This document shows, piece after piece, positions 26,023 through 52,135 of a stretch of 64,000 bases of DNA (the first letter of the stretch is position 1; every line of letters begins with the position of its first letter). This DNA is from Isosphaeraceae bacterium. GTDB taxonomy: Bacteria; Planctomycetota; Planctomycetia; Isosphaerales; Isosphaeraceae. Both the position numbers and the translations under genes were made by a program. The stretch is taken from assembly GCA_025356475.1 (NCBI GenBank), contig JANXSX010000088.1:1-64000 (forward strand), in the 5' to 3' direction. The notes under the pieces are model-generated. The model did no database searches, was not told the DNA's origin, and saw nothing but the letters and a program-made list of their open reading frames with translations.

Positions 26023-26257
26023 GCGACACTCCTGCCCGGCACGCCGGGACCGACCGAGGCGGGACGGACTTACCGTATCCCCAAAACCTCGACCCGAGGG
26101 AACCTTCCCTGGATGAACCGAGCACTCCAAGAGTGATCGCCGCCCACCGTTTCCGCTTGATACCAATATCCATCTGAACCGAAGTGAAGGTTGAGGAACC
26201 CCACATGCTTAGTTATTCGGCAAATTCACGGGAGCACTGAAGCAGATCTTTCCGAAC

Positions 26258-27900: not shown

Positions 27901-28030
27901 TCGCGACCAAGAAGTGCATTAGAACGCTCGAAATGCGACAATGGAGCGGCGCTCCCGACGAATCCGTACTAGGCGGAGCTCGTGGGCGTCGCTTCGTTCG
28001 TCCATCCTTCGGTTGGGAAGAAGCCCTTCG

Positions 28031-29566: not shown

Positions 29567-29573
29567 AGCAACG

Positions 29574-30965
29574 ATGCGGCTCTACCCTACCGAAGAAGAG
29601 ACCATCGTGGGGACCGCGCGAGATCTTCGCGCAAGAAGTCTCTCATGTGTCGATGTTGTGCAACGATGCCTTGCGAAGATCGATGAACGCGAACACGAGG
29701 TCAAGGCCTGGGTGAGCGTTGATCGCCAGCAAGCGTTGAAGCACGCGCGAGTGCTCGATCGCGAACTCGCGAATGGTGAGGATCGTGGGCCGCTGCACGG
29801 TATCCCCTTCGGGATCAAGGATATTATTGACGTAGCGGGTTGGCCCACTGGCGCTGGCTTTGCGGCTTGGTCGGACCGGATCGCCTCGCAGGATGCACCA
29901 CTCGTTGCAGCCTTGCGCTCGTCGGGAGCGATTATCCTCGGCAAGACCGTGACCACGGCCTTCGCTTGGATTGACCCATCGATCACCCGAAATCCCTGGA
30001 ACGTCAATCATACTCCTGGTGGCTCCTCAAGTGGATCGGCAGCGGCCGTTGCCTCTGGCATGTGTCTGGGTGCCCTTGGTACTCAGACCGGCGGTTCCGT
30101 GATTCGGCCAGCTTCGTTCTGCGGTGTCGTCGCATTCAAACCCAGGCGGCAAAGCTTACCGACCGGCGGGATCGTACCGTTCGCCCGTTCCCTCGACACT
30201 CCAGGTCTCTTTGTTCGCTCCGTCGAGGATCTGCGAGTCACCTACTCACAGCTTCTGGCCAAGGCGGACGACCTCGGCAAAGAAATCAATTCATCTCATT
30301 CCCAAGATCCAACGACCTGGTCAATTCCCGCTCGACAACCCGTGCGTGTGGGACGTCCTGTCGGAGTGATTTTCGATCGTGCGGATGCCTCAATGAAGTC
30401 TGCGATTGAGTCCGCATATACCGCAATACTCAATCGTGGAACTGCTGTCGTCGATTGTCATCTGCCAGTCGGTTTTGACGAGATCCATCCCATTCATCGC
30501 ATCATTATGGCGGTCGAAGCAGCCGAGGCTCATGAACCGGTCCTGAAGCTCGATCGCGAGCAACTTCCTCCCAAGATTCGCGCGATCTGGGAAGAGGGTC
30601 TCGCAGCCACTGGTGTAAAGTACTTACGTGCGGTGAATCAAAGGGCGATGATGGAGTTGGCGTTCAACCTCAAGGGCCTCGGAAGCGTGAATCCCGTTGA
30701 ATTCCTTGTCATGCCTGCCGCGATTGGGGCTGCTCCGGACCTCGCCACAACCGGGGACCCCTGGATGAACTCGCCTTGGACAATGCTCGGACACCCCGTG
30801 ATTACAATTCCCGCAGGCTTGGATTCCCGAGGTCTACCCCTCGGGATTCAACTCGTCGCTCCGTGGAAGGCGAACGGCAACGGGGAGTCTCCCGAGTTCG
30901 TTCTGCAACTCTTCGCCGAAGCTCAGTGGATCGAACAAACCATCCGACAGTCGCTGGGTTATTGA
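29574..30965 (+). CDS. Amidase signature family protein
   Basis: The 463-residue enzyme has all three catalytic elements of the amidase signature family: Lys in GIPFGIKDI near residue 80, the cis-Ser in TPGGSSSGSAAAVA near 150, and the nucleophile Ser in GTQTGGSVIRPA near 173. Such enzymes hydrolyse amides, and GatA is the best-known member; this one lacks the usual GatB/GatC neighbours and is more likely a free amidase. It starts 7 bp after the first GTPase and ends 13 bp before the second, which argues for a linked function. Confidence 0.88.
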   Translation: MRLYPTEEETIVGTARDLRARSLSCVDVVQRCLAKIDEREHEVKAWVSVDRQQALKHARVLDRELANGEDRGPLHGIPFGIKDIIDVAGWPTGAGFAAWSDRIASQDAPLVAALRSSGAIILGKTVTTAFAWIDPSITRNPWNVNHTPGGSSSGSAAAVASGMCLGALGTQTGGSVIRPASFCGVVAFKPRRQSLPTGGIVPFARSLDTPGLFVRSVEDLRVTYSQLLAKADDLGKEINSSHSQDPTTWSIPARQPVRVGRPVGVIFDRADASMKSAIESAYTAILNRGTAVVDCHLPVGFDEIHPIHRIIMAVEAAEAHEPVLKLDREQLPPKIRAIWEEGLAATGVKYLRAVNQRAMMELAFNLKGLGSVNPVEFLVMPAAIGAAPDLATTGDPWMNSPWTMLGHPVITIPAGLDSRGLPLGIQLVAPWKANGNGESPEFVLQLFAEAQWIEQTIRQSLGY

Positions 30966-30978
30966 ATCGAGAATCAGG

Positions 30979-32436
30979 ATGTCGACCATGACCCCCGATC
31001 ATCAGACTGACACCCCAACGACGCCCGAGCCCACGCTCGACGAAGTCCTCGAACGTCTCGACGAGTCGCCCGCTGCCGGTGACGATCTCTACACGCGAGC
31101 ACGCGAGTCTCTCGAAACAACTCTCGCCGACTTGAAGTTGACCCCTCAGGAAGAGCGAGCCCTCCAAGGAGAGCTCGGCGAACTTCGCGAGATCGCTCGC
31201 AAGCTCGACGATCACACCGTAGAGATTGCCGCATTCGGCATGGTCAGCCGAGGCAAGTCCTCCGTCCTGAACGCCCTGCTCGGTCGAGACGTGTTCCGGA
31301 CCGGCCCAATCCACGGGACGACCTTCAAGAAAGAAGCTGAGGTCTGGGAAGGAGTCGCTCCATCCGCCGATTCCTATGGCAACGCACGTCTCGTACTTAT
31401 CGATACTCCTGGAATCGATGAGGTAGAAGGCGAAGTCCGTGAGCGGCTTGCTCGCGATGTCGCACATCGAGCGGATGTGATCCTCTTCATTGTCTCCGGC
31501 GACATGCAGCGCAGGGAATTCGAAGCCCTCGCCGAGCTCCGTGAAGCCCAAAAGCCGATCCTTCTCGTCTTCAACCAGATCGATCGTTATCCCGACGCCG
31601 ATCGGCAGGCGATCTACGACAAGATCACCAACGAACGCGTGCGCGACCTGGTCCGTCCTTGTGATGTTGTCATGACTGCCGCTCGGCCCGACCCCATCAG
31701 GGTCAAGGTTCGACATCTTGATGGGACCACGACAACAGCTTGGGAGCAACCCGAACCGATCATCGAACCGCTCAAGACCCGCATTCTTGAGGTTCTGGAG
31801 CTGGAAGGCAAGGCTCTCGTCGCGTTGAACGCACTCCTGCAAGCTAAGGATATTCATGAATCGATAGTTGAACACAAATTGATGATTCGTGACGACGACG
31901 CCAATGCATTGATCTACAAATTTTCGATCGCCAAGGGAACGGCCGTTGGTCTCAATCCGATCCCGTTTGCCGACATTGCGGGGGGGCTCGCGGTCGACAT
32001 CGGCATGATTGTCGCCTTATCCAAAGCATATGGAGTCCCGTTGACGCGAAAGACGGCGACGGGATTGGTCAAGGACATGCTCCGAGCGCTCGGAACCCTT
32101 GGCGTGGTCGAGCTTGCGACCCGCCAGATCGCCGGGTGGGTCAAGGCCTCACTTGCAGGAGTCACCCTCGCGACGGGTTGGCTCGCGTTACCACTGACCG
32201 CCCTCGGTTATGCCGCGATCGGGCTCACCCAGGGCACGACGGCTGCATTGACCTCCTACGTCCTTGGTCAAGCCGCAAAGATCTATCTTAAGCAGGGATG
32301 CCAGTGGGGACCGAAAGGAATTAAGACCACGATTCAGCAGATTTTGCTCGAAGCCAAGGCCGACTCCGTCGTCGAACGTCTCCGAGACGACCTCAAGCGC
32401 AAAATCGATCCCCGAGAGCGAAATCGCACCCCCTGA
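30979..32436 (+). CDS. Second membrane-associated GTPase, DUF697-like
   Basis: This 485-residue paralogue of the upstream GTPase has a helical acidic N-terminal 80 residues, then G1 GMVSRGKSS near 90, G3 DTPG near 142 and G4 NQID near 198. The C-terminal half has LNPIPFADIAGGLAVDIGMIV and further apolar helices (LAGVTLATGWLALPLTALGYAAIGL), as in the first GTPase; both also share a QWGPKG/TWGDGG-like element near the end. No membrane helix precedes the G domain here, so the two copies differ in topology. It ends the three-gene unit before an intrinsic terminator and tRNA-Leu. Confidence 0.83.
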   Translation: MSTMTPDHQTDTPTTPEPTLDEVLERLDESPAAGDDLYTRARESLETTLADLKLTPQEERALQGELGELREIARKLDDHTVEIAAFGMVSRGKSSVLNALLGRDVFRTGPIHGTTFKKEAEVWEGVAPSADSYGNARLVLIDTPGIDEVEGEVRERLARDVAHRADVILFIVSGDMQRREFEALAELREAQKPILLVFNQIDRYPDADRQAIYDKITNERVRDLVRPCDVVMTAARPDPIRVKVRHLDGTTTTAWEQPEPIIEPLKTRILEVLELEGKALVALNALLQAKDIHESIVEHKLMIRDDDANALIYKFSIAKGTAVGLNPIPFADIAGGLAVDIGMIVALSKAYGVPLTRKTATGLVKDMLRALGTLGVVELATRQIAGWVKASLAGVTLATGWLALPLTALGYAAIGLTQGTTAALTSYVLGQAAKIYLKQGCQWGPKGIKTTIQQILLEAKADSVVERLRDDLKRKIDPRERNRTP

Positions 32437-33955: not shown

Positions 33956-34081
33956 TGCTAGGTTTCAATTCGGTGCAAGTTCCATTTGCGGTCATGGACT
34001 GAGGAAACTGCGACGTTCGTTTCGTGGCCATCAGGAACAAATTACGTCCGCATAATCCTCAGAATAGGAATAGACAGTCCG

Positions 34082-35827
34082 ATGATCATCCCAAAGCCCA
34101 GATCGAGTTCGTCTGCACGTGGCGCACAGAAGCAAAAGCAGCGAACTCTGCTCAGTTTCGACCGACTCGAATGCCGCGAGTTGCTCGCTCTAACGATTCC
34201 AACGGTATCGGCAACTGCGGGGTACGCGTATAGCGCCACGATCGCAACTCTCCCCATTTCTGATGTTCAAGGAGTGAGCCTCGCCAACTTAAGCGCCACG
34301 ATCACTTGGGGCGACAACACTACGAACGACGTTCCTCTCACCGCACTTGGCGCAAACTCCTACGCGATAGTCGGTTCCCACGTCTACACCACAGCCAACA
34401 ATTACACTCTTGGCGTTAATGTGAAGGTCTTAGGATCGGGGGTCGTGAGTGGAACAAACGTTTCAAACGTTGTTGCTCCGTTGGCACCGGCATTGGTCGC
34501 CACACCCACCATCTTCGCGGCTCAGGTCGGTGTCAATGCACCAAACGTGTTCGCTGCCAGCTTTAGCGATGCGTCGACCCCGGCTCTGGCGGCGGGTTCC
34601 TTCAACGCTGTCATCAATTGGGGAGACAACCAGACTTCGATCGGTACGATTACAGGGCCGACCAGCGGTGTCTTCCAGGTTGCTGGCACACACACCTATG
34701 CAACGACCGGGACAAACGGGCAATTCACGGTCATCACCACGATCACAAGGCTGACCGACAGCAAAGCTGTGACAGTCTCCGCAACGGCCGTGGTGAGCCT
34801 TCCCGCACCGACAATCGCCGGAGCTCCAGGCACGTTCACAGCCGTCGCGGGGCTACTGGCGAGCAAGGTTCTGGTTGCAACCTTTACCGATCCCGGGACG
34901 TCCGCCCTTACTTCGGCTTCTTACCGGGCGTTTATCTCGTGGGGCGATGGCCAAACTTCGATCGGTGAAATCAGCGGGCCAACGAACGGCGTTTTTGAGG
35001 TCACTCATGATCACACCTACGTGGCAACCGGGGCGGCACCGGGGCAGAACGGAACTTACACGGTTTCGACTGTTGTCACCCGAGTCACGGACTCGCAGTC
35101 CAATACGGCCACAGCAACCGCGACCGTCATTCCACAGGTGAGTGGTTCGATCTTCGGCCTTAACGCAGGTGCGATCTCGAACAACCGGCCGCTAATTCAA
35201 GGAACCGCAACTCCCTATGCGTTTGTCAGGCTCACGGCGATTGGGCCCGGAGTCCTGGGAACGTTGATTTTGGGCCAGACCGTGGCCGATCCAATCGGGA
35301 ATTGGAACCTCCAGACTGGGCCCCTGGCGGATGGTCTCTATACCATCACCGCCACCGCCAACAGTCCGGCAGGCTTTCCAGAACAGTCTGCTTTGATCGG
35401 TCCTGGGGGTCAACTGATCGTTGACACGATTGGGCCACAAGTTGTAAGCGTCGGATATGATCGACTGCTCAACCAACTCGTGATTGTTACCCGCGATGTC
35501 GGAGTCGGAATGTCCTTGCCCGGCTCGGGCTTGAGCAACCCCGCCAACTTCGCGATCACGGGGCCGAGTCGGAGAGTGAACATGGGGCTCGTCATCTACC
35601 CGTCGTCAGTCACGGCCCAAAATGTCGCGACAAACGATCCGACGCTGGTGCGGACAGTGATTTCCTTGTCGTCCCGCCTCGGTCTCGGCCACTATAACCT
35701 TCGAATTGCAGCCTGGTCGATCACCGATCGAGTTGGCAACGCCCTGCGTGCGCCGAATGTCATCGCATTCACTGTGGCCAACTCGCACAAGTTCCCCAGG
35801 TCTTCAAAACCTAGAGTGACCCGCTGA
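34082..35827 (+). CDS. Surface protein with PKD/Ig-like repeats
   Basis: The product has 581 residues from the ATG at 34082 (AGGAATAG upstream); the frame is open to 33986, but the extra part is not signal-like. After a Ser/Lys-rich start comes RLECRELLALTIP, the planctomycete export motif. Three similar beta domains follow, each with WGDxxTS and GVFxVxxxHTY marks (starting near DNA positions 34308, 34618 and 34939, spaced about 310-320 bp), then a bacterial Ig-like domain (about residues 365-450, IFGLNAGAISNNRPLIQGTA), and an SbsA-like C-terminal part (NQLVIVTRDVGVGM...). No catalytic motif is seen. A cell-surface adhesive or structural role is likely. Confidence 0.8.
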   Translation: MIIPKPRSSSSARGAQKQKQRTLLSFDRLECRELLALTIPTVSATAGYAYSATIATLPISDVQGVSLANLSATITWGDNTTNDVPLTALGANSYAIVGSHVYTTANNYTLGVNVKVLGSGVVSGTNVSNVVAPLAPALVATPTIFAAQVGVNAPNVFAASFSDASTPALAAGSFNAVINWGDNQTSIGTITGPTSGVFQVAGTHTYATTGTNGQFTVITTITRLTDSKAVTVSATAVVSLPAPTIAGAPGTFTAVAGLLASKVLVATFTDPGTSALTSASYRAFISWGDGQTSIGEISGPTNGVFEVTHDHTYVATGAAPGQNGTYTVSTVVTRVTDSQSNTATATATVIPQVSGSIFGLNAGAISNNRPLIQGTATPYAFVRLTAIGPGVLGTLILGQTVADPIGNWNLQTGPLADGLYTITATANSPAGFPEQSALIGPGGQLIVDTIGPQVVSVGYDRLLNQLVIVTRDVGVGMSLPGSGLSNPANFAITGPSRRVNMGLVIYPSSVTAQNVATNDPTLVRTVISLSSRLGLGHYNLRIAAWSITDRVGNALRAPNVIAFTVANSHKFPRSSKPRVTR

Positions 35828-35921
35828 TCTCTCGTTCTCGTGCATAATGCGTTTCTTTGAGGTTGGCGGTCCAGGGTCGGGTCCGCCACTTCTTATGACA
35901 CTGGCCCTGTGGAGTATGTCG

Positions 35922-37874
35922 ATGAGTATCAGACATTTTTTCTCGATAATCGGCGTCTTACTGACGCTGGCGACGAATTCTCTCGCAGAGCCGTCAGATC
36001 CACCAAAGCCACCAACAGGACTACGGGCCGCGATTATTGGCGAATCTTCCTGGGTCCGGCTAACGTGGGTTGCCACAGCCCCCATGCCAGATTCGAAACT
36101 TGGCCCAGTTTACGAGATCGAACGGCTTCTACTTGACGAACAGAACACACAGCCCAAGCTGATCACACGAACCTCCGCCATCCAGAATACGCTCGTGTAT
36201 GTGGACCGAACAGGTCTGCCCGCAGGGACCAAGATTCAATATAAAGTTAGGATAATTGTTCAAGGGATTGCCTCAAGTTACAGCCAGCCAGCGCAGGTCA
36301 AGCTTCCAGCGAGTCTAAGCACAATGTACAGAGCGGAGGACTTCGACAATGGACGACTCGATCCGGACTGGCAGTCGTTGCCTCCTCCAGCTAAGAATGC
36401 TGATCCCGGCCTTTCGTGGTTCCTTGATAACGGGGTTCTCACCTGGCCTTCTTTTGGTGAGACCGATAAATCTGTCCCATCATTGAGGCTACTTCTTAAG
36501 AATAAAACCATGACGCCAACCGCCATGCAAATCACCGCTCGAATCGCGGTCGAATCCGGCTCCCAGACCAGTACTGATATGAAATTGGGTGTCGGCCTCT
36601 TTGCACTGGAGGGCGATGGACGTGGTTTTAACCTCGTTCTTCGGCAGGATGAGACTGGCAACGTCGTGCAGTTTCTGCGTGAGAAGGGGCTTCCTCAAGG
36701 AGAGGAAGAAGTCGGCGACAGTCTCACGTACAGTAAAAAACCAGCAGAATGGTTCGTTTCACCTGGGCCTACTGGGCCTAGTGCTCCGCGAACATGGTAT
36801 TGGCTGCGACTTCGCGTCGACGCCAACTCGATCAAGGGGACGTTCTGGCCAGACATAGACCTTCACGGAGAGAAAGGAGCTCTAGGAGGGAAAATGGACC
36901 GTCCGGCAAACGCTCCTCTCACAGGGTTTCCTGTGCTCCTTGGTGCCGGGTTTGGCGCCCGAGCCGCTTTCGGCGAAGTTTATATTGAGGATCTCTCGAG
37001 TGTAGTCACGGTCACGAATGGCACTGACAATACTCCTCCAACTGCGAGCCCAGATGATTATTCGCCGCGAACAATCCTCGCAGACACTGCAACGAGGAAC
37101 GAAAGCGAGCTTCTACGTAAGGAGGCTCACACCAATCGCAATCGTGGGTTGCCAGAGCCCGCTTTCACTAACGTGCCGACGGTCAGTCGACTCGTGGTGC
37201 GAGGCGACCTTCGACCAGAGGACGAACCGATCTCGGGGGACGTTGCCGAGTCGACTTATCTGGAAGACCTTCGACTAGATACGTTTCCCTTCGATTTCGC
37301 AAACGCTGCCCACTTCCCTTTGACGAGGTTCGGTACGTGCGGTGAGGAATTCGATAGCGAAGGAGCCGTCATTCACGAGGGAATGCGTTTCGTCGCGTCA
37401 CCGAATGGCTATTACGAAGTCCGGTTCGTGACTTCAACACCTGCCTCTCCTGTGACAATCCGGCTCCAGTTCAAGCTCAGATATGGGAGCGGAGAAACGC
37501 GGACAGTCAGCCTTCCGGCTGTTCCGATCGAACCATACACTGACAACCTCGGGAATTTGAAGGCCGCGACTTGGCAGGTTCGCCACATTGGGTACTCATC
37601 TGCCCTCGTTAGACCTGACTTAACCATCTATAACCCTGAGAATTTGGGTATCTACAATCCGGTCCCAACGCGACGCGATCCTCGAACCACCAAGAACGCC
37701 TGCAAAGATATCAGAGATTACCTCACTCACGGTTGGAACCCTGTATTAATAGTCGCCGACAAGATCCTCCCGAAAGAGGAACCTCGGCCTTTTTTCATAT
37801 CAATTGAGCGATCGGGGGTTGCTCGCTTCGGTTCTTACCCGAGTTCCCAGAGTAGCCCACGATACTCGAACTGA
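35922..37874 (+). CDS. Secreted protein with FnIII-like N-terminal domain
   Basis: The product has 650 residues if it starts at the ATG at 35922, which has GGAG exactly 7 bases upstream; earlier ATGs at 35895 and 35916 lack that spacing. Signal peptide MSIRHFFSIIGVLLTLATNS, cleaved near residue 23. Residues about 28-125 look like a fibronectin III domain (PPKPPTGLRAAIIGESSWV then YEIERLLL and YKVRIIV). Residues 135-340 look like a jelly-roll (FDNGRLDPDWQSLP, TWYWLRLRVDANSIKGTFW). The C-terminal 300 residues are unknown. It is exported, with no enzyme motif seen. It lies 94 bp after the Ig-repeat gene and before a strong terminator. Confidence 0.72.
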   Translation: MSIRHFFSIIGVLLTLATNSLAEPSDPPKPPTGLRAAIIGESSWVRLTWVATAPMPDSKLGPVYEIERLLLDEQNTQPKLITRTSAIQNTLVYVDRTGLPAGTKIQYKVRIIVQGIASSYSQPAQVKLPASLSTMYRAEDFDNGRLDPDWQSLPPPAKNADPGLSWFLDNGVLTWPSFGETDKSVPSLRLLLKNKTMTPTAMQITARIAVESGSQTSTDMKLGVGLFALEGDGRGFNLVLRQDETGNVVQFLREKGLPQGEEEVGDSLTYSKKPAEWFVSPGPTGPSAPRTWYWLRLRVDANSIKGTFWPDIDLHGEKGALGGKMDRPANAPLTGFPVLLGAGFGARAAFGEVYIEDLSSVVTVTNGTDNTPPTASPDDYSPRTILADTATRNESELLRKEAHTNRNRGLPEPAFTNVPTVSRLVVRGDLRPEDEPISGDVAESTYLEDLRLDTFPFDFANAAHFPLTRFGTCGEEFDSEGAVIHEGMRFVASPNGYYEVRFVTSTPASPVTIRLQFKLRYGSGETRTVSLPAVPIEPYTDNLGNLKAATWQVRHIGYSSALVRPDLTIYNPENLGIYNPVPTRRDPRTTKNACKDIRDYLTHGWNPVLIVADKILPKEEPRPFFISIERSGVARFGSYPSSQSSPRYSN

Positions 37875-37902: not shown

Positions 37903-37932
37903 GGGCAGCCCTGGTCTTAACCAGGGCTGCCC
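37903..37932 (+). terminator. Intrinsic terminator
   Basis: A perfect 12-bp GC-rich stem (37903-37914 with 37921-37932) with a short loop lies 28 bp beyond the stop of the FnIII-like gene and is followed by a T-rich tract. It separates that gene from the giant lipoprotein gene. Confidence 0.85.
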
Positions 37933-38096
37933 TTATGTATTTCATTCGTTCGGTGACTCAAATCTAGACTTGCCGCCAGAATCGGAATAATCGGCAATAT
38001 CTGTTAAGGTCGCATGTCTAGGACGTCGATGTGAGTGGAGTGGCGATCAATCGAAAATGGCGAATCTCAGAATCCGGCGGAGCCGGGGGGACGACG

Positions 38097-41000
38097 ATGC
38101 AAGAGCCGACTTCGAGAGGCTGGGCGACTTCCCAAGCATTCATGCCGTTCTTAATTTGCTGCCTAGCCACGGGTTGTGGCCATTCGACCAACTCACTTCC
38201 CGAGAAATCCGTAGCGCTTCCACCCAATTCCACGCAGTCTGAGCCCGAGGCAAAAATTGACTCAGGCGTTATCCGTACTGGTGGCGTTCCGCCAAGCATC
38301 GTTGGGCTGTCGGCAATCTCTCAAGCACCGAACTTCAGTCTGGCGTTCTCCAACCCTCTCAATATCCCTAGTAATTCAGATGCACAAAAGCTCGAGACGA
38401 TTGCCGACGGTCCTGTGTCGGTAACGCTGACCATGACGTCTGCACCTGTCACGACGAATGATCCTACCCTGGTGCAGATCAAGCGGAACTCCGACGGGTT
38501 TCTGCTTCCCGTTCCCACCGCTGTGACTTCGGCCACAGACTCTAAAGTCTTCACGATTAACTTTACGTCAAGAGGAGGCTATGAGGTAAGCCTCCGTGGC
38601 CAGCCCGGCAAGATGTTGGTCGTTCTGAACAACGTTCCGAACAACGATCCGAACACTAAACATCTGCTTACACTCAGCGAAATTGTTGAAACGCTTAACA
38701 ACACGACTTATACGACGAACCTCCGATCAAATTCTGTGACGAGTCCCATTCGGCTTAATCCCAATGCGGTCTTGACATCCGTACATGTGACGAACGCTGG
38801 TTCTCGGCCTGTCGTTGTGGTGGACAACAACGGGACGCTATTCGGAACGGGAGTCGATACTTCAGCAGCAGCGACAGTCTTGAACATCGCAATCAAGCCG
38901 AATCCCGATTCCGCTCAACGGGTCTTGCAAGCTCTCGATCAGTGGTCTCTTGAATCAAACGGAGCGTTGAGCGAGGTTCAGTTAATCGCTAGTAAGAGCA
39001 ACAATCCGGCCCAGCCCAAGGTTTTGAACGTTTCCAACACCCAAGGGATTCCTCCCTCGACTATCGCTGACATCAGCAAGCCGATCCCGGTCTTCGACAA
39101 CTACATCCGTCTGGTCGGCCTCAACGCGCCAAAGACACGCGCTGTACGGTTCGAGGTCTTTGAAACGGACTCAGGCGGGAATTTCAATCGGGCTTTGAAG
39201 CCAGCCAGCACTGCGATTCTATCTTCCACGGGCAGTGCCCAGTGGGACGCCGAGCTCGGATTCGCGGACACCTCGAAAGACCTGAATGTCTTCGTCGTTG
39301 CCGATGATAACGAAGGTCAGAACTACTCGTTGCCGTTAACGCTCACCGCCAGGCCGATCGCTTTCCTTCCCACGGATAAGCCGACCATTAAGAATATCAC
39401 CGAAGCGAACGTGTTGGTCCCGGCGACGACCCCGCCCACGTATGCCACAAAGAGCAATAACGTCACTGTTAGGGTAGGGGGTGTCGCAAGCGGCACAAAT
39501 CTGGTGTTCACCCTCAATGATCAAGGAATCATTCCCACTTCAGTCACTGCAATACCCGGTAGCACGGACCTAATCGCAACCCTCTCCAATCTCATCGACG
39601 ATTCGTACACGCTGATAGCCCGGTTCTTGAGCGGGACATCGCCTAGCGCCCCCTCCGACCCCGTGAACCTCCGGGTCAGTGGCAAGGGACCAGTGGTCTC
39701 AGACATTCTCCCGTCGGATTTCGGGATCTCTGCGGGTCCACAGACCCTGACGATTCACTTCACGGGGAACAAACTCCAAAAGGCCCCCGCGGAGACCGTG
39801 ACTAACTACACTGTGACTCCCTCCACTGGGAATACGTTTACGGTCGATCCCAATACTGCGCCCAAGTTCGCCGCGACTTACGATGACGCGACAAACTCAG
39901 TCACGCTTAAATTCGACAACCTGCCGGTGAGCAATTATCGTGTCACGCTTGCTGATAATAATCTCGTCGATATTTTTGGCAATAAACTAGCTGCAATCCA
40001 AGGTGTCGACAAGAACGTCTTCTCACGGGAATTCGTTCGCACCGTCGGGAACTCGGGGATCGCGGGATTGGAATCTGCGGTCATCCCGCCCGGGAGGTCA
40101 GCTCCTTTCATCCCTTACCCGGAGTTCAACCCTCCTCGGGAGCCAACCAATGGGTTTAACCCTGAGGACAATGTTCAAACGCGCATCGTCCGGCTTTATT
40201 TCTACCGTGATGCTCACCGAGTAGCGCAGATCGTCAACCGTCACGTCGATTCGTACAACCGAGTTGCCGTGGATACCAGACGACGACTGGCCAATGAGAC
40301 ACGACGACAAGCGGATGTCTTCACCGATACTCGCCGCCTTCAGGAGCTGACTGCGGTCCGCGCTGCTCAGGACACTCGAGCTGCTCAGAAAGCATTTGAT
40401 CAGGCCACTCAGAACGCTGCGAACGTGAAGCAGAATTTGACGGCTGCCCAGACTTCGATCAATCCGCTACAGACACAACTCAAAGATGCAAATGATGCCC
40501 TGGCTGCGGCGAAAGCTCCCGATCCAACCACGGGACTTCCGGCTAACTCCGCCGACATCCCAAATCTCCAAGCCACAGCCAACAATCTAAACGCGCAACT
40601 GCAGCAGGCTACCACGACGACCGGCTCCGCACCGAAGGACTTGTCCTCAGCGCAGGATGCGGTCAATCGAACCCAACAGGACTTGCTCGAGAAACGAACC
40701 GTCGAAGCGAATGCCAGCGACAAGCTCGCGGGGCAAGGATTCCAGGAAGACCGTGCGCGGGAGTCGCAGTTCCGTCTTGAAGTCGGGGGCGCTCACGAAG
40801 ATCCCGACACCTTCGCGCCCGGTGTGCCCAACTCGATTGACCCCGTCGAGCAAGTCTCCGTGGCCGTGATCGGCGAAGGTGTCATCCAACTTCGTGGACC
40901 GATCAAGGGGATCAACATCGTCCGAAAGATGATCAACGAGATCGATTCACCAGCCGGCCAGGTGCGAATCGCGATTCACACGGTCCAGATCAATGGCGAG

Positions 41001-44000
41001 CACGGCGATCGGATGGAGAAGGTCAAGTCGAAGATCAAGGACTCGATCGATCACGCTCGATTTGTCACGATGCAATCGGGTCAAATGCTCCGCAACGCTG
41101 TGGTGAAAGTTGCCTCTCGCCGTGCTGTCGAAGCGGCCGCGCTTTGTCCAGACGGAACGACCCAGGCCGCCCGAGAAGCCAAGTATGTAGACGCGTTTTT
41201 TGGTGCAGACTTTCTCCGCGAACTCCAGGCGATCGATAGTGAGTTTCTCCGAAGCGGCAACAAGGTGATCTCACTCCATTCGATGGATACCACAAGTCTA
41301 GCAGCCGCACTGATGCTCATGTCTCTTGCAAAGAACGAGACACGTCGCGAGATTCTCGACGAATTTCACGCAAGTATGGCTGGTGAGCTTCCGGCTGCCG
41401 AACTCAATTACTTTGAGGCAGGAGGAGTTCGAGACCAGAAGCACAAGCATCTCCAGCATCTTCATCACAAAGACCAGTTTGTGCTCCTTGCCGGAAACGC
41501 ACGATTCCAGTCTCTCACTGGCTTCTTTAATAACGAGGTCGAAGGGAACGATACCCTGACCCCCATCCAGCGCGAGTTCATTCGCCTCGCTCAGATCTTC
41601 AAGAGCCGCCTCGTGACCGAGATGCAGCTCAACGAACGGATCAAGGAACGTGGTCTCATCGAGGACCGGATCGGCAATCGGCTCGAAGAGCTAAAAAAGG
41701 ACAAGGAGAGGGAAGACCTTGCGACCCAAGCGTTCGCAAACCGGCGTGCGGAATTGCAAAGACAGCGGACAATTATTTTGCAGTCGATCGACGTTCTAGG
41801 GAGTGAGATACGTCGTGTCCAGTTAGAAACTGTTAAGAGCCAACCTCGCATTGAGAGAATTTCTTCTCTACTCACTGATAGCTTTCTGTCTATTTATCCC
41901 GATATCCAGAAGGATCTACCTCGCGTTGGGATACTAGCGAGTATTCAAAGAGCATCAGATCGGTGGGATGAGAAGGTGCGAAACGATGGAAAGGAACCCG
42001 AACCTCTTACATTTACTCTGTTGTTAAATAATCGAAGGGTGAATTTCATCTTCAGAACCTCCAAGGAAGATACTCTCACCATGTATTATCTGGAATCCAC
42101 AGCGAAGGATCCACAAGCCCAAAAAGATGATCTTAAGCTGGCGACTGACCAATTTCGGACATGGATCGCGGAGTTGTCAGCCGTGCGTCAATTCTTCGAT
42201 AATTTCGCCATGTCGGAAACGGGCTCGCGTGCAATAAACAGCGCAGAGCCTTATTTGGCCAGGCTACGGCTTCGAAATTTCGACCGACCACATGTTCTGA
42301 AAACTGATGACGACAATGGACCTTTGGATTGGTGGGACTTTCGGTATCTAATTAAAGTCGCTGTTCCCTATGGAGGATTGCTTGATTCGATCAATCGCGA
42401 AGCCCAGGTTTTCGCGAACGAATTCAACCGGCTCGTCAATGATCTTGATCGGCTCAATGTCCCCGCACGTGATCTCAGTCGCCGTCTGGAAGTATTGAGA
42501 CAACGAGCGAGCGTTAGTCTCAAGGGTGACCTGCTGATCAAATCCGATGTGGTCTTTGGCAACATCAGCACATCACTCGAAACATTGCTCCAAGCCGATC
42601 TCAACCTCACATTCGCCAGACAAAATCTTGCAGAGTCCCGCCGTCCCCTGGACTCAAAGAAGTTGCTCGATTCACTCATCAGCGAGAAGGAAGACAAGTA
42701 CATCGAACTGCTTGAAGGGACTCGTGCCCACACCGCAGTTGTCGATGGGTATCTCAAGGCACTAGCAACAGCTCTTGACGACGACTTTAATACACAGTTC
42801 TACGATCCCGCCTTTCGGCAGGTTCGAGCTGCAAGCCGGCTCTGGGATGTTCAACTCGCACAGATCGAGAAAACCAGCGTCCTTACCAATAATCGGATGT
42901 TCGCCAAGGTCTCCCCTACGGCCACCATGGAGTTTGATCTCCCCAAGCGAAAGATTCTGATTACTGAGGGCATGAACTCAGCAAAGGCACTCATGGATGA
43001 GTATGGTGCACTCTTGAACGACCCCACCTTCCTGTCGCTCACGAAACTGACCAGCGGTCAGCCTACGAGTTCCCTAGCACAAGGGACGCAGGGAGGAGGA
43101 GCCAGTTCGGTCCGGAGTGTACTGCCCGAGCTGTCGCGGAGTAACGACGAACAGGTTCTTCGACAAGCCGGCCCCGGTCGTCGTGAGTTCGGCTCGGCTC
43201 TCGAAGCCCTCATCCCCGACCCGGCGATTTACAAGTTTGAGACCGGGACAGGCTACGAGATCCGACCTGTGATTCAGCCCGACGGTCAGGCCGTGACATT
43301 CGACTTCAATTACATGTACACGACCAATGTGCGTGAGCCGGTCCGTGCGGATGAGAAGCATCTCGGCAGGGTCAAGCGTCACTTCTACAACGGTCCAGTC
43401 CAACTCAGCAATTACGAGCTCCGCGAGGTCACGGATTACCAGGTCGCGCTCAAGGCGTCTCGGACAAGTCGAGGAGTTCCTTTGCTTGAAGACGTTCCCG
43501 CCTTGGGCATTCTCTTCCGCCCCCTCCCGAGTGCCGAGTCTTCGCTTCAGCAAAACGTGATTCTGGCCCAGAGTACGATCTTCCCTACGCTGTTTGATCT
43601 GATGGGCCTCCGCTGGGCTCCAGCCGTCGCCGATCTCGACACGCTGGAACTCAAGAATGCCGACTTCATCGTGAGAGGCAGAGCTCGCGACTTGTCCAAC
43701 CGTGTCTATGACGAAACATCATCGACAGTCGATAACTTCATGAGAGTCGCACCCTCCGAGCGTCGTCCCGATCTCTATCGAGCTCAGGACACGATTCCTG
43801 ATGTCCATCCCAACGGATATCGCGGGCCAGGGTTGAACTTGAAAGACAGTAAACTCAAAGAGGGATACAGTCCCGAAGCCGTGTTTCCTCCCTCAAACGC
43901 GATTCCGGAATCATCGAGCAGTATGGGGGGCGACTTCGGAATCCCCGCAGTAAGAGGAATGGTACCCAACACTGGAATACCGGTTGAATCGGAGTACCGC

Positions 44001-44321
44001 CGGATAGAGGTCCCGGTTCATTCCGAGGAGAGTCTTCCTGAAAGGAACGACGGGAGGGGTGCGACTCGCGTACGCCCAAAGGCACAAGTGGCCCGGGCCG
44101 CTCCTGTAACACCTGCGAAGGTCGCGACACGACCGGCGGTGACCACCCCAGCGCCAGCTCTAACCGCAACGCGACCCATGTCAATCGACCGTTCGGTTGT
44201 TCAGACCAAGGCACCGCTGCCCCCTCTTCCGAATTCAGGAAAGACAACGAACCCGGCACCCAAACCGGAACCCCGTGGATTCTTCCTTCGCAAACCGAAG
44301 AAAGAGGCTGAGCCCAAGTAG
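38097..44321 (+). CDS. Giant secretin-like lipoprotein
   Basis: The product has 2,074 residues from the ATG at 38097; a GTG at 38031 would add 22. The lipobox LATGC follows an apolar segment (FMPFLICC), Cys near residue 27. Residues 50-660 are Ig/SbsA-like beta domains. Residues 720-880 are a coiled coil rich in Arg, Gln and Ala (DTRRLQELTAVRAAQDTRAA). Near 923-967, VAVIGEGVIQLRGPIKGIN followed by IDSPAGQVRIAIHTVQING matches the N-domain of secretins. A second coiled coil spans about 1150-1260. Near 1716-1835, IRPVIQPDGQ, SRGVPLLEDVPALGILFRP and NVILAQSTIF match the C-terminal secretin core. The end is Pro/Lys-rich. Secretins are 450-800 residues, so this is far larger, with a 700-residue insertion between the halves. 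I infer an outer-membrane channel or structure; whether it forms a ring is unknown. Two further exported proteins follow. Confidence 0.75.
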   Translation: MQEPTSRGWATSQAFMPFLICCLATGCGHSTNSLPEKSVALPPNSTQSEPEAKIDSGVIRTGGVPPSIVGLSAISQAPNFSLAFSNPLNIPSNSDAQKLETIADGPVSVTLTMTSAPVTTNDPTLVQIKRNSDGFLLPVPTAVTSATDSKVFTINFTSRGGYEVSLRGQPGKMLVVLNNVPNNDPNTKHLLTLSEIVETLNNTTYTTNLRSNSVTSPIRLNPNAVLTSVHVTNAGSRPVVVVDNNGTLFGTGVDTSAAATVLNIAIKPNPDSAQRVLQALDQWSLESNGALSEVQLIASKSNNPAQPKVLNVSNTQGIPPSTIADISKPIPVFDNYIRLVGLNAPKTRAVRFEVFETDSGGNFNRALKPASTAILSSTGSAQWDAELGFADTSKDLNVFVVADDNEGQNYSLPLTLTARPIAFLPTDKPTIKNITEANVLVPATTPPTYATKSNNVTVRVGGVASGTNLVFTLNDQGIIPTSVTAIPGSTDLIATLSNLIDDSYTLIARFLSGTSPSAPSDPVNLRVSGKGPVVSDILPSDFGISAGPQTLTIHFTGNKLQKAPAETVTNYTVTPSTGNTFTVDPNTAPKFAATYDDATNSVTLKFDNLPVSNYRVTLADNNLVDIFGNKLAAIQGVDKNVFSREFVRTVGNSGIAGLESAVIPPGRSAPFIPYPEFNPPREPTNGFNPEDNVQTRIVRLYFYRDAHRVAQIVNRHVDSYNRVAVDTRRRLANETRRQADVFTDTRRLQELTAVRAAQDTRAAQKAFDQATQNAANVKQNLTAAQTSINPLQTQLKDANDALAAAKAPDPTTGLPANSADIPNLQATANNLNAQLQQATTTTGSAPKDLSSAQDAVNRTQQDLLEKRTVEANASDKLAGQGFQEDRARESQFRLEVGGAHEDPDTFAPGVPNSIDPVEQVSVAVIGEGVIQLRGPIKGINIVRKMINEIDSPAGQVRIAIHTVQINGEHGDRMEKVKSKIKDSIDHARFVTMQSGQMLRNAVVKVASRRAVEAAALCPDGTTQAAREAKYVDAFFGADFLRELQAIDSEFLRSGNKVISLHSMDTTSLAAALMLMSLAKNETRREILDEFHASMAGELPAAELNYFEAGGVRDQKHKHLQHLHHKDQFVLLAGNARFQSLTGFFNNEVEGNDTLTPIQREFIRLAQIFKSRLVTEMQLNERIKERGLIEDRIGNRLEELKKDKEREDLATQAFANRRAELQRQRTIILQSIDVLGSEIRRVQLETVKSQPRIERISSLLTDSFLSIYPDIQKDLPRVGILASIQRASDRWDEKVRNDGKEPEPLTFTLLLNNRRVNFIFRTSKEDTLTMYYLESTAKDPQAQKDDLKLATDQFRTWIAELSAVRQFFDNFAMSETGSRAINSAEPYLARLRLRNFDRPHVLKTDDDNGPLDWWDFRYLIKVAVPYGGLLDSINREAQVFANEFNRLVNDLDRLNVPARDLSRRLEVLRQRASVSLKGDLLIKSDVVFGNISTSLETLLQADLNLTFARQNLAESRRPLDSKKLLDSLISEKEDKYIELLEGTRAHTAVVDGYLKALATALDDDFNTQFYDPAFRQVRAASRLWDVQLAQIEKTSVLTNNRMFAKVSPTATMEFDLPKRKILITEGMNSAKALMDEYGALLNDPTFLSLTKLTSGQPTSSLAQGTQGGGASSVRSVLPELSRSNDEQVLRQAGPGRREFGSALEALIPDPAIYKFETGTGYEIRPVIQPDGQAVTFDFNYMYTTNVREPVRADEKHLGRVKRHFYNGPVQLSNYELREVTDYQVALKASRTSRGVPLLEDVPALGILFRPLPSAESSLQQNVILAQSTIFPTLFDLMGLRWAPAVADLDTLELKNADFIVRGRARDLSNRVYDETSSTVDNFMRVAPSERRPDLYRAQDTIPDVHPNGYRGPGLNLKDSKLKEGYSPEAVFPPSNAIPESSSSMGGDFGIPAVRGMVPNTGIPVESEYRRIEVPVHSEESLPERNDGRGATRVRPKAQVARAAPVTPAKVATRPAVTTPAPALTATRPMSIDRSVVQTKAPLPPLPNSGKTTNPAPKPEPRGFFLRKPKKEAEPK

Positions 44322-44556
44322 GACCCAATCTCTCTATGTTTTCCCAACTCCAGGGTAGGGATTGAGAGTCGCGATCCGACATCACCCCCACACGATCAGG
44401 ACGATCGACACGATTGTTCCTGATCGCAAAGGTCTACAGATTTCGGCATCCAGTCGCGATCGACAGCGACCCGATCAAAGAAACGTGTCTCCAGACCCGT
44501 CGCGGACGCGGTGAGACGCCATGGGGTTGGGATACGGTGCGAAAGGGGCGGAGTCC

Positions 44557-45366
44557 ATGGATGGGAATCGGATCGGATTTGTCATACTGTCTGCCACGAT
44601 GGTGGTCGTTGGCGCGGGGTCGGATCATTACAAGGTCAAACCTCGGATTGCGTGCGGGATCGCTGCACGGGACTATCAATTCCGGCAATTCTCGATTCCT
44701 GTGGTGGCACGAAGTCAAACCTCGACGCCACTTAACCCCAGCATTCCTCAAGCCGTTATCGCAAGCGCAACCATAGTTGCCACAGCACCCAATTCTCCGA
44801 CGGCGGTAAGGACGCAGTCGACGGTGGTCCAAGACCCAGTTCTGGCCGGTGGATTTGTTTCGGCTGCCAGCCTGTATCCTCCGGTCCAGGGCAAGATCTT
44901 TCAGTTCTTCCAGCCATCCCTTTTGTCGAGTGATCAGTGCGTCCTTTCGGAAATGGCCGCGACAATCGATTCACACGGACATTGGGTGATCAGCTTCCGG
45001 GCTGACCAGAGCCGTCCAGCACTGATAAAATCTGGACCTATGCTCATCAACGTTCCTGTCCCCAACCCGATTCGCCCGTCGATAAAGCAGACTAGCCATA
45101 TTCTGCGGGATCTGTTCGTCCTGAAGGTTCGCTTTCTTGCCTCCCAACCCGGATCCGTTCGGGATTCGCTAGTTCGTAATGATGATCCGGTCGTATTCTC
45201 CGTAGATCTGGAACCGTTCTGGGTTGAGCGGGGGATGTCACGGAAGCTGCAGTTCAACGGAATCATACCAGCCGAACTGGCCACCCGAAGCTTTGACCGA
45301 GCCGAGCGGGTTGAAATCGAGTTTTCTTACCAGCTACAAACCGGCCTGTCAGGGCAGACTTTTTGA
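44557..45366 (+). CDS. Exported hypothetical protein of the secretin locus
   Basis: The product has 269 residues from the ATG at 44557 (AGGGG about 9 bases upstream). The N-terminus RIGFVILSATMVVVGAGS is a weak signal peptide. The rest is beta-rich, with no Cys motif or enzyme motif: IFQFFQPSLLSSDQCVLSEM, IDSHGHWVISFRADQSRPA and a C-terminal block of alternating apolar strands (VEIEFSYQLQTG). It starts 236 bp after the giant lipoprotein gene and ends 36 bp before the next start, so it is probably part of the same system. Confidence 0.65.
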   Translation: MDGNRIGFVILSATMVVVGAGSDHYKVKPRIACGIAARDYQFRQFSIPVVARSQTSTPLNPSIPQAVIASATIVATAPNSPTAVRTQSTVVQDPVLAGGFVSAASLYPPVQGKIFQFFQPSLLSSDQCVLSEMAATIDSHGHWVISFRADQSRPALIKSGPMLINVPVPNPIRPSIKQTSHILRDLFVLKVRFLASQPGSVRDSLVRNDDPVVFSVDLEPFWVERGMSRKLQFNGIIPAELATRSFDRAERVEIEFSYQLQTGLSGQTF

Positions 45367-45402
45367 TCTAACGTGAACCCGACCAAGGAGGGAAGGGACG
45401 CC

Positions 45403-46167
45403 ATGCTCCGATCTACGTTCACGAAGACTCTGGCTACGGGCTCATTCTTGATGGCGATGGTCACCCTAGCACTTGGTGGCGATCACCATAAGGCGGTCCC
45501 GGTACCTCCGGCGCTTGAAATCGAAGTCCTCGATCCCGCTGCCGATCCGGTCGGAAATCCCGCTGTTGAGACGAGGCTCGGACCAGATGGTCGAATGACA
45601 ATCGAGATTCCCAAACTCGTCCTGGTTCATCGATACTACTACACTGGTGATCGATCCTTTCAGTTTCGGTTGATTCCAGGCGGGCCCGTCGTCCTTGTCG
45701 TCGACCATCCTCGCACAGGGGAACGCCTCTACGTTGAAACGACATTGCCGCCGGGGGCGCCTCGGGTCAATTATACAAGTGAGTCAATTCAGTATGATTA
45801 TGGTAATCAAAGCGTGACGCTGTTGTTCCCAAAACACGGATCACCGAAGGTTGCCTTTCGACACAGTAGTGAAAAGTCTTCGGTCGAGCGTCGCGTCGAT
45901 CGCGAACTCAAACTTGCAACAACAAATGCAGAGCCGAAGCGCAAGTTCGGCGAGTCCCTGCGCAAAGCTGCGACCTCAACTTCCAAGGGTGTGCATTCTC
46001 TGAGCACAGTTGTGACGAAACCCATTGCCGCAGCCATCAAGGCGACCCCGTTAGGAAACCTTCGGAGTACTCCTGAACGAGATGCAACTAAGGCACGGAA
46101 CACTCTTGCTGATAAAGCTGCGAAGGAGGCCTCCACAGTCAACGCAACCATCCCGAGCGAGCTTTGA
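45403..46167 (+). CDS. Exported hypothetical protein with basic C-terminus
   Basis: The product has 254 residues from the ATG at 45403, preceded by AAGGAGG about 11 bases upstream. Signal peptide MLRSTFTKTLATGSFLMAMV, cleaved near residue 24. Residues 30-140 form a beta domain (MTIEIPKLVLVHRYYYTGDR, FQFRLIPGGPVVLVV). From about 150 the chain is basic and Ala/Thr/Lys-rich (ERRVDRELKLATTNAE, KAATSTSKGVHSLS), possibly disordered. I know no family. It is the last cargo gene of the island. Confidence 0.65.
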   Translation: MLRSTFTKTLATGSFLMAMVTLALGGDHHKAVPVPPALEIEVLDPAADPVGNPAVETRLGPDGRMTIEIPKLVLVHRYYYTGDRSFQFRLIPGGPVVLVVDHPRTGERLYVETTLPPGAPRVNYTSESIQYDYGNQSVTLLFPKHGSPKVAFRHSSEKSSVERRVDRELKLATTNAEPKRKFGESLRKAATSTSKGVHSLSTVVTKPIAAAIKATPLGNLRSTPERDATKARNTLADKAAKEASTVNATIPSEL

Positions 46168-50434: not shown

Positions 50435-52135
50435 ATGGCAACCGAGGCCTCCTTGCTCGTGATCCAAGGGGCCGACCAAGGCAAGCGGTTCGGCTTGAAT
50501 CGCAGGCCAATGGCCCTCGGGCGAGACAATTCGAACCCGATTCGACTCCACGACCATGAGGTCTCCCGGCGCCATGCCGAGATCCGCCCGCAAGACGATG
50601 GGCTCTACGCGCTCGCCGACCTTGGTAGCGCCAACGGGACTTATGTCAACGGTGAGCTCGTCGACCAGGTTGTCCTAAAACTCGGCGACCAGGTGCAGAT
50701 TGGCCAATCGATTCTGGTGTATGAGATCAAGTCCGATCTCCCTCACCGCGACCAATCCGCTCGCGTCGAGCTGAGCGAGACGGACCGCTCGGCCATCCTC
50801 AAGAGCATCCCAGCCGATGAAAGCTCGCGGATCCTGCATGCGCCGGGAAGTGCAGGGGACTGGCTGCGATCAAAGCTTTCCAGCTTCACGGCGATGTACC
50901 AGGCGAGCCAGGCGATCCGGCTGACGACCGATGTCGAGACCCTTCTCCCCGAGATTCTCGATCTGGTCTTCGAGTCGATTGGAGCCGATCGAGGGGCGAT
51001 CTTGCTGGTCACTGAAGAGACCAATGAACTCGTCGCGAAGGCGGTCAAGTGGCGAGACGGCGACCCGCCCGACCTCAACGAAAGCCTGCCGATTCCGCGA
51101 TCGATTGTCGATCACGTACTTCAAAAAGGTGAAGGGGTGATCACGTCCGACGCACCTGCCGATAAGCGGTTTGCGTCGGGGGGTTCGATCGCCGCCCGGA
51201 ACATCCGCGAGGCGATCTGCGTCCCGCTACGTGGTCGCCAGGCCCCGCTCGGCGTTCTTTATGCGGATATCCGTTCGGCCCCCGACCTTGATGCGGGAGC
51301 CTACGTTCGAGGCAAGTTTACGAACGATCATTTAATGCTTATGGCTGCGATTGGTCATCAGGCTGGTTTGGCGATCGAGAATACCCGTCTCTATGAAGCC
51401 AAGCTTCAGTCGGAGCGGCTCGCGGCAGTGGGACAGACGATCGCTACCCTCTCACATCATATCAAGAATATCTTGCAAGGGATTCGTGGTGGTTCCTACC
51501 TCATTGACATGGGCTTGAACGAGAAGGACGACGTCATCGTGAGACGAGGTTGGGGGATTGTTGAAAAGAATCAAAATAAGATCTACCACCTTGTCATGGA
51601 TATGTTGAGCTTTAGCAAAGACCGCGAGCCAGCCTTGGAGTGGTCGGATCTGAATGCGACGACTGAAGAGGTCATCGAGCTGATGCAGTCGCGGGCCACG
51701 GAACTGGGTGTCGCATTGACATGGACCCCCGCGACGGGTTTGCCCCCAGTCCTGTTCGATCCCGATGGTTTGCACAGGGCAATTTTGAACATTGTGACCA
51801 ATGCGATCGACGCCGCCGAGGAGATCCAAGGGGCGAAGGTCATGGTCTCAACCTCGTGGGACGCCAGCGACAATGTCGCTCGGGTGCTGATCTCTGACAA
51901 TGGGGTGGGCATCGCCGAGGACGATCTGGCGGGGATCTTCGGCCTATTTGCTTCGACCAAGGGGACCCGAGGGACCGGCCTGGGCCTACCGGTCTCGCAA
52001 AAGATCGTCCGCGAGCATGGCGGCAAGATCGTCGTGACCTCGCGGATCGGCGAGGGCTCGACCTTCACGATTGAGCTCCCGCTCACCTCGTCGTCGACCC
52101 TCGATACCGGCGAGATGACTTTGCTTGAGGATTGA
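50435..52135 (+). CDS. FHA-GAF sensor histidine kinase
   Basis: The 566-residue protein has three parts. Residues 5-95 are an FHA domain that binds phosphothreonine (MALGRDNSNPIRLHDHEVSR, then GSANGTYVNG). Residues about 160-310 are a GAF domain (DRGAILLV, CVPLRGRQAPLGVLYAD). The kinase has the H box VGQTIATLSHHIKNILQG near residue 338 and the ATPase domain with N box NIVTNAIDAAEE, G1 ISDNGVGIAEDD and G2 GTGLGLPVSQKI. No membrane helix is seen, so it is cytoplasmic. No response regulator is adjacent. FHA in front of a histidine kinase suggests crosstalk with Ser/Thr kinases, common in planctomycetes. Confidence 0.92.
   Translation: MATEASLLVIQGADQGKRFGLNRRPMALGRDNSNPIRLHDHEVSRRHAEIRPQDDGLYALADLGSANGTYVNGELVDQVVLKLGDQVQIGQSILVYEIKSDLPHRDQSARVELSETDRSAILKSIPADESSRILHAPGSAGDWLRSKLSSFTAMYQASQAIRLTTDVETLLPEILDLVFESIGADRGAILLVTEETNELVAKAVKWRDGDPPDLNESLPIPRSIVDHVLQKGEGVITSDAPADKRFASGGSIAARNIREAICVPLRGRQAPLGVLYADIRSAPDLDAGAYVRGKFTNDHLMLMAAIGHQAGLAIENTRLYEAKLQSERLAAVGQTIATLSHHIKNILQGIRGGSYLIDMGLNEKDDVIVRRGWGIVEKNQNKIYHLVMDMLSFSKDREPALEWSDLNATTEEVIELMQSRATELGVALTWTPATGLPPVLFDPDGLHRAILNIVTNAIDAAEEIQGAKVMVSTSWDASDNVARVLISDNGVGIAEDDLAGIFGLFASTKGTRGTGLGLPVSQKIVREHGGKIVVTSRIGEGSTFTIELPLTSSSTLDTGEMTLLED

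What the first reader, a model, noticed from the sequence alone, without database searches (positions are those of the whole stretch)
38097..44321. Lipoprotein of about 2,070 residues with secretin N- and C-terminal signatures
The protein joins a lipobox, several Ig-like domains, two long coiled coils, a secretin-type N-domain near residue 940 and a secretin-core-like end near 1,720-1,835 (VPLLEDVPALGILF). Known secretins are three to four times smaller, and a long coiled-coil and helical block splits the two signatures. Planctomycetes show crater-like pits on their envelopes whose main proteins are not settled; a giant secretin would be a candidate. This link is my inference.
Basis: partly seen in the sequence, partly recalled or inferred. 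Interest (0 to 1): 0.8.

Follow-up and report, generated by a model that had tools for sequence, protein, structure and literature searches.

The report
Giant split secretin of some Planctomycetes
This 2,074-residue protein belongs to a previously unnamed branch of the secretins (ring-shaped outer-membrane gates), interrupted by two long helical insertions and travelling with a fixed partner gene, so it is a real new variant of a known gate, but not a shown component of the pits on planctomycete cells.

Summary
Window 38097-44321 encodes an intact 2,074-aa exported protein with secretin signatures. Alone it is below every curated cut-off, but its family is not: of 35 homologues, 26 match Pfam Secretin (best E 7e-8), and three relatives (two of 2,050 and 2,240 aa) pass the curated cut-off. 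AlphaFold2 models of residues 690-1889 and of an 820-aa compact relative were searched against the PDB: every match with E<=0.001 (33 and 32) was a secretin. One secretin N-domain is split by a coiled-coil hairpin, and the secretin domain is split after its first strand by a 296-667-residue helical block. The N-domain half (71 aa) and barrel half (128-130 aa) hardly vary in length; everything between does. There is about one copy in 44 of 398 class genomes. The long form is locked to a small exported protein coded beside it (36 of 39 versus 1 of 359 genomes, p=2e-46), with no pilus or secretion ATPase nearby. Best reading: outer-membrane ring of an uncharacterised envelope complex. The crater link is not supported by the patchy distribution. 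Secretins in frames of about 4,750-5,070 aa with at least 27 tandem N-domains also exist in the phylum, so size alone is not unique.

The parts
38097..44321 (+). giant secretin-superfamily protein, 2,074 aa (upstream GTG at 38031 possible)
   Evidence: 35 homologues in A5; AF2 and Foldseek
38097..38177 (+). export signal ending in lipobox-like LATGC (Cys27)
   Evidence: sequence; clear lipobox only in window and L031 of 35
38178..40166 (+). N-terminal extension, probably Ig-like beta domains; about 30 to 1,000 aa in relatives
   Evidence: lengths; weak Ig-like Pfam hits in relatives
40173..40235 (+). first half of a secretin-type N-domain (strand, helix; RLYFYRDAHRVAQIV)
   Evidence: AF2 elements E4-10 and H17-24
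40260..40796 (+). antiparallel coiled-coil hairpin inserted in the N-domain, arms of about 85 and 80 residues
   Evidence: AF2 H33-117 and H132-211; length 68-346 aa in family
40857..40997 (+). second half of the N-domain plus first strand of the secretin domain
   Evidence: AF2 E232-237, E240-246, H247-260, E266-278; hhalign to canonical N3-strand junction prob 46%, E 2e-4, control 0.1%
41004..42845 (+). helical block splitting the secretin domain, about 610 aa here, 296-667 in the family
   Evidence: AF2; lengths
42852..42944 (+). strand pair SVLTNNRMFAKVSP...EFDL, in the place of canonical 'P.vlT.dn..A.i.vG...P'
   Evidence: AF2 E897-909 and E920-927; equivalence by eye against sequences
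42945..43220 (+). segment at the place of the canonical central gate, partly low-confidence and G/S/Q-rich
   Evidence: pLDDT below 50 at model 957-1009
43221..43583 (+). secretin barrel half: long strands plus VPLLEDVPALGILF at 43476-43517
   Evidence: AF2; hhalign 92.8%; PF00263 over cut-off in relatives
43584..44318 (+). C-terminal tail: conserved DLYRxQ/HPNGY stretch, then Pro/Ala-rich end
   Evidence: alignment
35847..37874 (+). upstream partner, 675 aa, exported, weak fn3, conserved C-terminal region (A8); conserved beside about half of the long homologues
44521..45366 (+). downstream partner 1, 281 aa, exported, unknown fold (A6)
45373..46167 (+). downstream partner 2, 264 aa, exported, unknown fold (A7), genome-wide co-occurrence with the long form

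Best explanation
The protein is an outer-membrane secretin-type ring subunit of a family specific, as far as sampled, to class Planctomycetia. Shown by computation: its C-terminal part is homologous to the barrel half of secretins; it has one secretin-type N-domain; both domains are interrupted by long helical insertions; it is coded beside small exported proteins that follow it between genomes. Inferred: like other secretins, 12-16 copies assemble through the N-domain and barrel strands into a ring in the outer membrane. The inserted helical block takes the place of the first hairpin of the secretin domain and acts as a gate or plug, or as a bulky collar. The coiled-coil hairpins (about 12 nm arms) and the Ig-like chain reach into the wide planctomycete periplasm. 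The neighbouring exported proteins (A6, A7, A8) are accessory subunits or substrates. Since no pilus, type II or type III ATPase is coded nearby, the most likely role is a self-contained conduit or anchor for exported surface material rather than the secretin of a classical machine.
For: Pfam Secretin in 26/35 members, best 7.2e-8; three relatives over curated cut-off, profile positions 52-165 of 169. PilQ, SctC, MshL, GspD and HofQ models all recur. hhalign 92.8%, E 3.9e-7 over 99 columns against 21 canonical secretins, controls 0.2-0.3%. hmmsearch of PDB with the C-core profile finds 10 secretins at the same motif. Foldseek: 33/33 and 32/32 matches with E<=0.001 are secretins. Module lengths: N-domain half 71 aa and barrel half 128-130 aa in all 35, insertions vary several-fold. 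Partner A7 in 36/39 genomes with the long form and 1/359 others, p=1.6e-46. Ordinary secretins are coded elsewhere in the same genomes; T2SSE ATPases of this genome are on other contigs.
Against: The window protein by itself stays below the Pfam and NCBIfam cut-offs. TM-scores are low (0.06-0.13 by query length) and rmsd large because only about 280 columns of 1,200 align and domains are placed arbitrarily in a monomer model. Model confidence is moderate (pLDDT 75 and 68). The first third of the Pfam profile is not found. Ring formation, membrane location and cargo are untested. Searches are taken to have drawn the same 398 genomes (same group, same number).
Confidence: 0.72

Rival explanations
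1. It is a decayed or repurposed secretin: the fold is kept as a ring-shaped scaffold of the envelope (a rivet between outer membrane and wall), but it no longer forms an open channel because the gate region is rewritten.
For: The canonical gate motif is not recognisable and that segment is low-confidence G/S/Q-rich; first third of the secretin profile absent; no secretion ATPase nearby.
Against: Barrel-half length and motifs are strictly kept over a deep tree, which suggests that the barrel still works.
Confidence: 0.2
2. It is the outer-membrane ring of the organism's own type IV pilus or type II secretion machine, with its helical insertions as an unusual docking site, the ATPase and pilins being coded elsewhere.
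For: The genome has six T2SSE ATPase matches on other contigs; planctomycete pilus genes are often scattered (own knowledge).
Against: All 16 carrier genomes tested have other secretins with an over-cut-off PF00263 match; the gene is in 11% of class genomes while such machines are common; its fixed neighbours are not pilus genes.
Confidence: 0.12
3. It is the main protein of the crateriform structures of planctomycetes.
For: A ring of 12-16 copies of 2,074 residues would be about 2.6-3.5 MDa with helical arms about 12 nm long; craters are outer-membrane complexes in contact with the inner membrane, about 104 per cell (PMC5394234).
Against: Found in only 44 of 398 Planctomycetia genomes and patchy within genera; crateriform structures are described as a characteristic signature of planctomycete surfaces (PMC5287468).
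Confidence: 0.05

Closest known systems
Secretin superfamily, barrel domain PF00263 (GspD, PilQ, SctC/InvG, pIV, RcpA)
   Same: Barrel-half strands, 'P.I..DG' strand turn, VPLLxDIPxLGxLF motif, hydrophobic last strand; best Foldseek matches InvG for the window model and ExeD/GspD for the compact relative
   Different: First part of the domain is replaced by a 296-667-aa helical block; gate segment rewritten; not linked to a type II, III or pilus operon
Secretin N-domain PF03958
   Same: Predicted beta-alpha-beta-beta-alpha fold directly before the first secretin strand, 'iDsPaGQV' junction in register with 'LDxxPxQV'
   Different: A single domain, interrupted after its first helix by a coiled-coil hairpin; no Pfam hit by sequence
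Liposecretins (self-piloting lipoprotein secretins such as HxcQ; from own knowledge)
   Same: Window protein and L031 carry a lipobox-like N-terminus
   Different: No clear lipobox in nearly all other homologues
Multi-N-domain giant secretins of other Planctomycetota
   Same: Secretin domain at the end of a very long protein in the same phylum
   Different: They reach frames of 4,754-5,073 aa by at least 27 tandem Secretin_N domains and keep a full PF00263 domain (E 2.6e-45)

Membership tests
Secretin superfamily | Match to PF00263 over the curated cut-off | tested here: met
   Met by three family members, 872, 2,050 and 2,240 aa (34.4, 30.1, 28.7 vs 27.5 bits); not by the window protein itself (15.7 bits)
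Secretin superfamily | Secretin fold in the C-terminal domain | tested here: met
   All PDB matches with E<=0.001 are secretins for two separate models
Secretin superfamily | Complete, contiguous secretin domain with canonical gate | tested here: not met
   Domain split by a helical block; profile positions 1-51 not matched; gate segment rewritten. So: superfamily by descent, but a divergent variant, not a canonical secretin
Secretin superfamily | At least one periplasmic N-domain before the secretin domain | tested here: met
   Predicted fold and hhalign in register at the N3/first-strand junction, prob 46% vs control 0.1%; no PF03958 hit
Secretin superfamily | Export signal | tested here: met
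   N-terminal signal and lipobox-like sequence read directly
Secretin superfamily | 12-16-mer ring in the outer membrane | not testable with these tools
   No multimer prediction available
Type II / type IV pilus / type III secretion system secretin | Gene linked to ATPase, inner-membrane and pilin or needle genes | tested here: not met
   Neighbours are A8, A6, A7 and housekeeping genes; T2SSE genes lie on other contigs
Crateriform-structure protein | Present in crater-bearing planctomycetes generally | tested here: inconclusive
   In 44 of 398 class genomes, which speaks against it; the named model strains could not be singled out

The most novel reading that the evidence does not exclude
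A new kind of secretin-based envelope machine: a megadalton outer-membrane ring whose gate has been exchanged for a helical domain and whose coiled-coil hairpins span an enlarged periplasm, working with a dedicated set of small exported proteins (A6, A7, A8) and without any known secretion ATPase, as a route for macromolecules across the outer membrane.
Probability: 0.3. Interest if true: 0.85.

Novelty: new variant of a known kind. Interest (0 to 1): 0.62.

Why it matters
Secretins are the shared outer-membrane gate of type II and III secretion, type IV pili and filamentous phage export, with a stereotyped domain. A lineage that splits both the N-domain and the gate half with large helical modules, and is locked to new partner genes, extends what the scaffold can hold. 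It also gives a concrete, deletable gene set for asking how planctomycetes move macromolecules across their unusual envelope.

Tried and rejected
Single-protein Pfam and NCBIfam scans leave the window protein unassigned; the family had to be used. The G004 match was a protein kinase with a chance similarity and was dropped. PDB hits to designed 'Cake' repeat proteins come from one short repeated PVI.DG-like turn summed over repeats and were rejected. Coiled-coil hits (SMC, IFT57, Beclin and others) reflect composition. A first regex for canonical N-domains caught one sequence only and was redone. hhalign in global mode did not align the region before the barrel half reliably, so the equivalence of SVLTNNRMFAKVSP rests on the structure model and on eye. 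Neighbours of compact members (cytochrome c / DUF1501, DUF1207, peptidase S15) are not conserved partners. A7 and A8 have no Pfam or PDB relatives. Literature searches found no description of a giant secretin in planctomycetes in the open library.

Full report
Observation. The window carries one intact frame at 38031/38097-44321 (+). From the ATG it encodes 2,074 residues starting with an export signal and a lipobox-like LATGC. Neither Pfam nor NCBIfam assigns it; the best single-sequence hints are PilQ (E 0.0012, residues 1788-1808) and HofQ (E 0.0067, residues 937-969). In its own genome PF00263 scores it 15.7 bits, below cut-off, while a separate 1,479-aa frame on contig C114 holds an ordinary secretin domain.

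Family. Searches of related genomes and of GTDB contigs gave homologues of 1,758-2,369 aa, intermediate ones of 1,232-1,627 aa and compact ones of 861-891 aa. Some of the shorter ones may be cut by contig ends. In 398 Planctomycetia genomes, 44 have a match, essentially one copy each, spread over five families and patchy within genera. A maximum-likelihood tree of the conserved modules separates the four compact members from the long ones with full support and groups long members mostly by host family, so the form is old with some losses or transfers.

Is it a secretin? Across 35 members, 26 match PF00263 (best 7.2e-8), 18 PilQ and 15 SctC; no other annotated family recurs in that number. Three relatives pass Pfam's curated cut-off with profile positions 52-165 of 169. 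Profile-profile comparison of the C-terminal core with 21 ordinary planctomycete secretins gives 92.8% probability and E 3.9e-7 over 99 columns, against 0.2-0.3% for two unrelated control alignments. A search of all PDB sequences with the core profile returns, apart from designed repeat proteins and weak troponin chimeras, secretins only, all at the VPLLxDIP segment. The N-domain/first-strand junction aligns in register with canonical secretins (46%, E 2e-4; control 0.1%).

Structure. AlphaFold2 on residues 690-1889 with 35 homologues (pLDDT 75, pTM 0.51) predicts strand-helix, a coiled-coil hairpin with arms of about 85 and 80 residues, then two strands, a helix and a long strand (a split N-domain running into the first secretin strand). 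About 610 mostly helical residues follow, and then the remaining secretin strands. All 33 PDB matches with E<=0.001 are secretins, InvG first; the next matches are mostly coiled coils. The compact 820-aa relative gives the same topology (pLDDT 68, pTM 0.60) and again only secretins among 32 matches with E<=0.001. The TM-scores are low because only some 280 columns align and the domains are placed freely in a monomer; the specificity of the hit list carries the argument.

Architecture. In all 35 members the N-domain half measures 71 residues and the barrel half 128-130, whereas the coiled coil varies from 68 to 346, the helical block from 296 to 667, the N-terminal extension up to about 1,000 and the tail from 76 to 348. 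The insertions are thus add-ons at two fixed places. The segment at the place of the canonical gate is partly low-confidence and rich in G, S and Q. A clear lipobox is found only in the window protein and its close relative L031.

Surroundings. Beside the long members lie conserved exported proteins: A8 upstream, A6 and A7 downstream (in some lineages upstream). None of those scanned has a Pfam family; A7 and A8 have no PDB relative. A7 with E<1e-20 occurs in 36 of the 39 genomes with the long form and in 1 of the other 359 (Fisher p=1.6e-46; this takes the two draws of 398 genomes to be the same). Compact members lack these neighbours. A perfect 13-bp inverted repeat at 37903-37932 lies between the A8 gene and the giant gene, so the two may be separate transcripts. 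The genome's T2SSE ATPases are on other contigs.

Mechanism. Shown: homology, fold, module layout, linkage. Inferred: assembly into a 12-16-fold outer-membrane ring; helical block as gate, plug or collar; hairpins and Ig-like chain as periplasmic spacers; A6, A7, A8 as accessory proteins or cargo; no classical secretion motor. I hold the secretin-ring part at about 0.9, the conduit role at about 0.6, and combined about 0.7.

Comparison. By origin it is a member of the secretin superfamily, but it fails one usual defining feature (a contiguous domain with a recognisable gate) and is not linked to a type II, III or pilus operon. It is best filed as a new variant. The crater hypothesis is weakened by the patchy distribution: crateriform structures are described as a signature of planctomycete surfaces (PMC5287468) and as outer-membrane complexes in contact with the inner membrane (PMC5394234). 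It could not be tested in the named model strains. Size alone is not the novelty: another Planctomycetota lineage has secretins in frames of 4,754-5,073 aa with at least 27 tandem Secretin_N domains.

Noticed in passing
L158 2808-18026 (+), L159 1337-15598 (+): Secretins in frames of 5,073 and 4,754 aa from another Planctomycetota family. In L158 a 3,508-aa part (read as L122) has 27 Secretin_N stretches (991 bits) plus a full PF00263 domain (E 2.6e-45). If each N-domain forms a ring, this would be an exceptionally long periplasmic tube; further long frames in G149, G299 and G410.
   Followed up: partly
37903-37932: Perfect 13-bp inverted repeat with a 4-base loop (GGGCAGCCCTGGT-CTTA-ACCAGGGCTGCCC) between the 675-aa gene and the giant gene; terminator or attenuator candidate.
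   Followed up: no
27941-32436: Two DUF697/slr1306-type membrane GTPase genes flank an amidase gene, an odd trio.
   Followed up: no
33986-35827: 613-aa protein with a weak Big_13 Ig-like hit directly upstream; homologues near three other giant genes, sometimes on the other strand.
   Followed up: partly
25099-26166 (-): Polysaccharide export protein with SLBB domains (Wza-like), another outer-membrane export gene in the same window.
   Followed up: no
50435-52135: FHA-GAF-histidine kinase protein whose FHA part also matches the YscD cytoplasmic domain model.
   Followed up: no
L123 9012-11744 (-): 911-aa-frame secretin resembling a type III secretion SctC, the non-family locus closest to the giant's core profile (E 8.4e-8); the SctC branch may be the nearest relative.
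   Followed up: no
G044, G048 and others: Short proteins weakly matching the middle of the A7 profile in genomes without the long secretin: a possible ancestral A7 domain.
   Followed up: no
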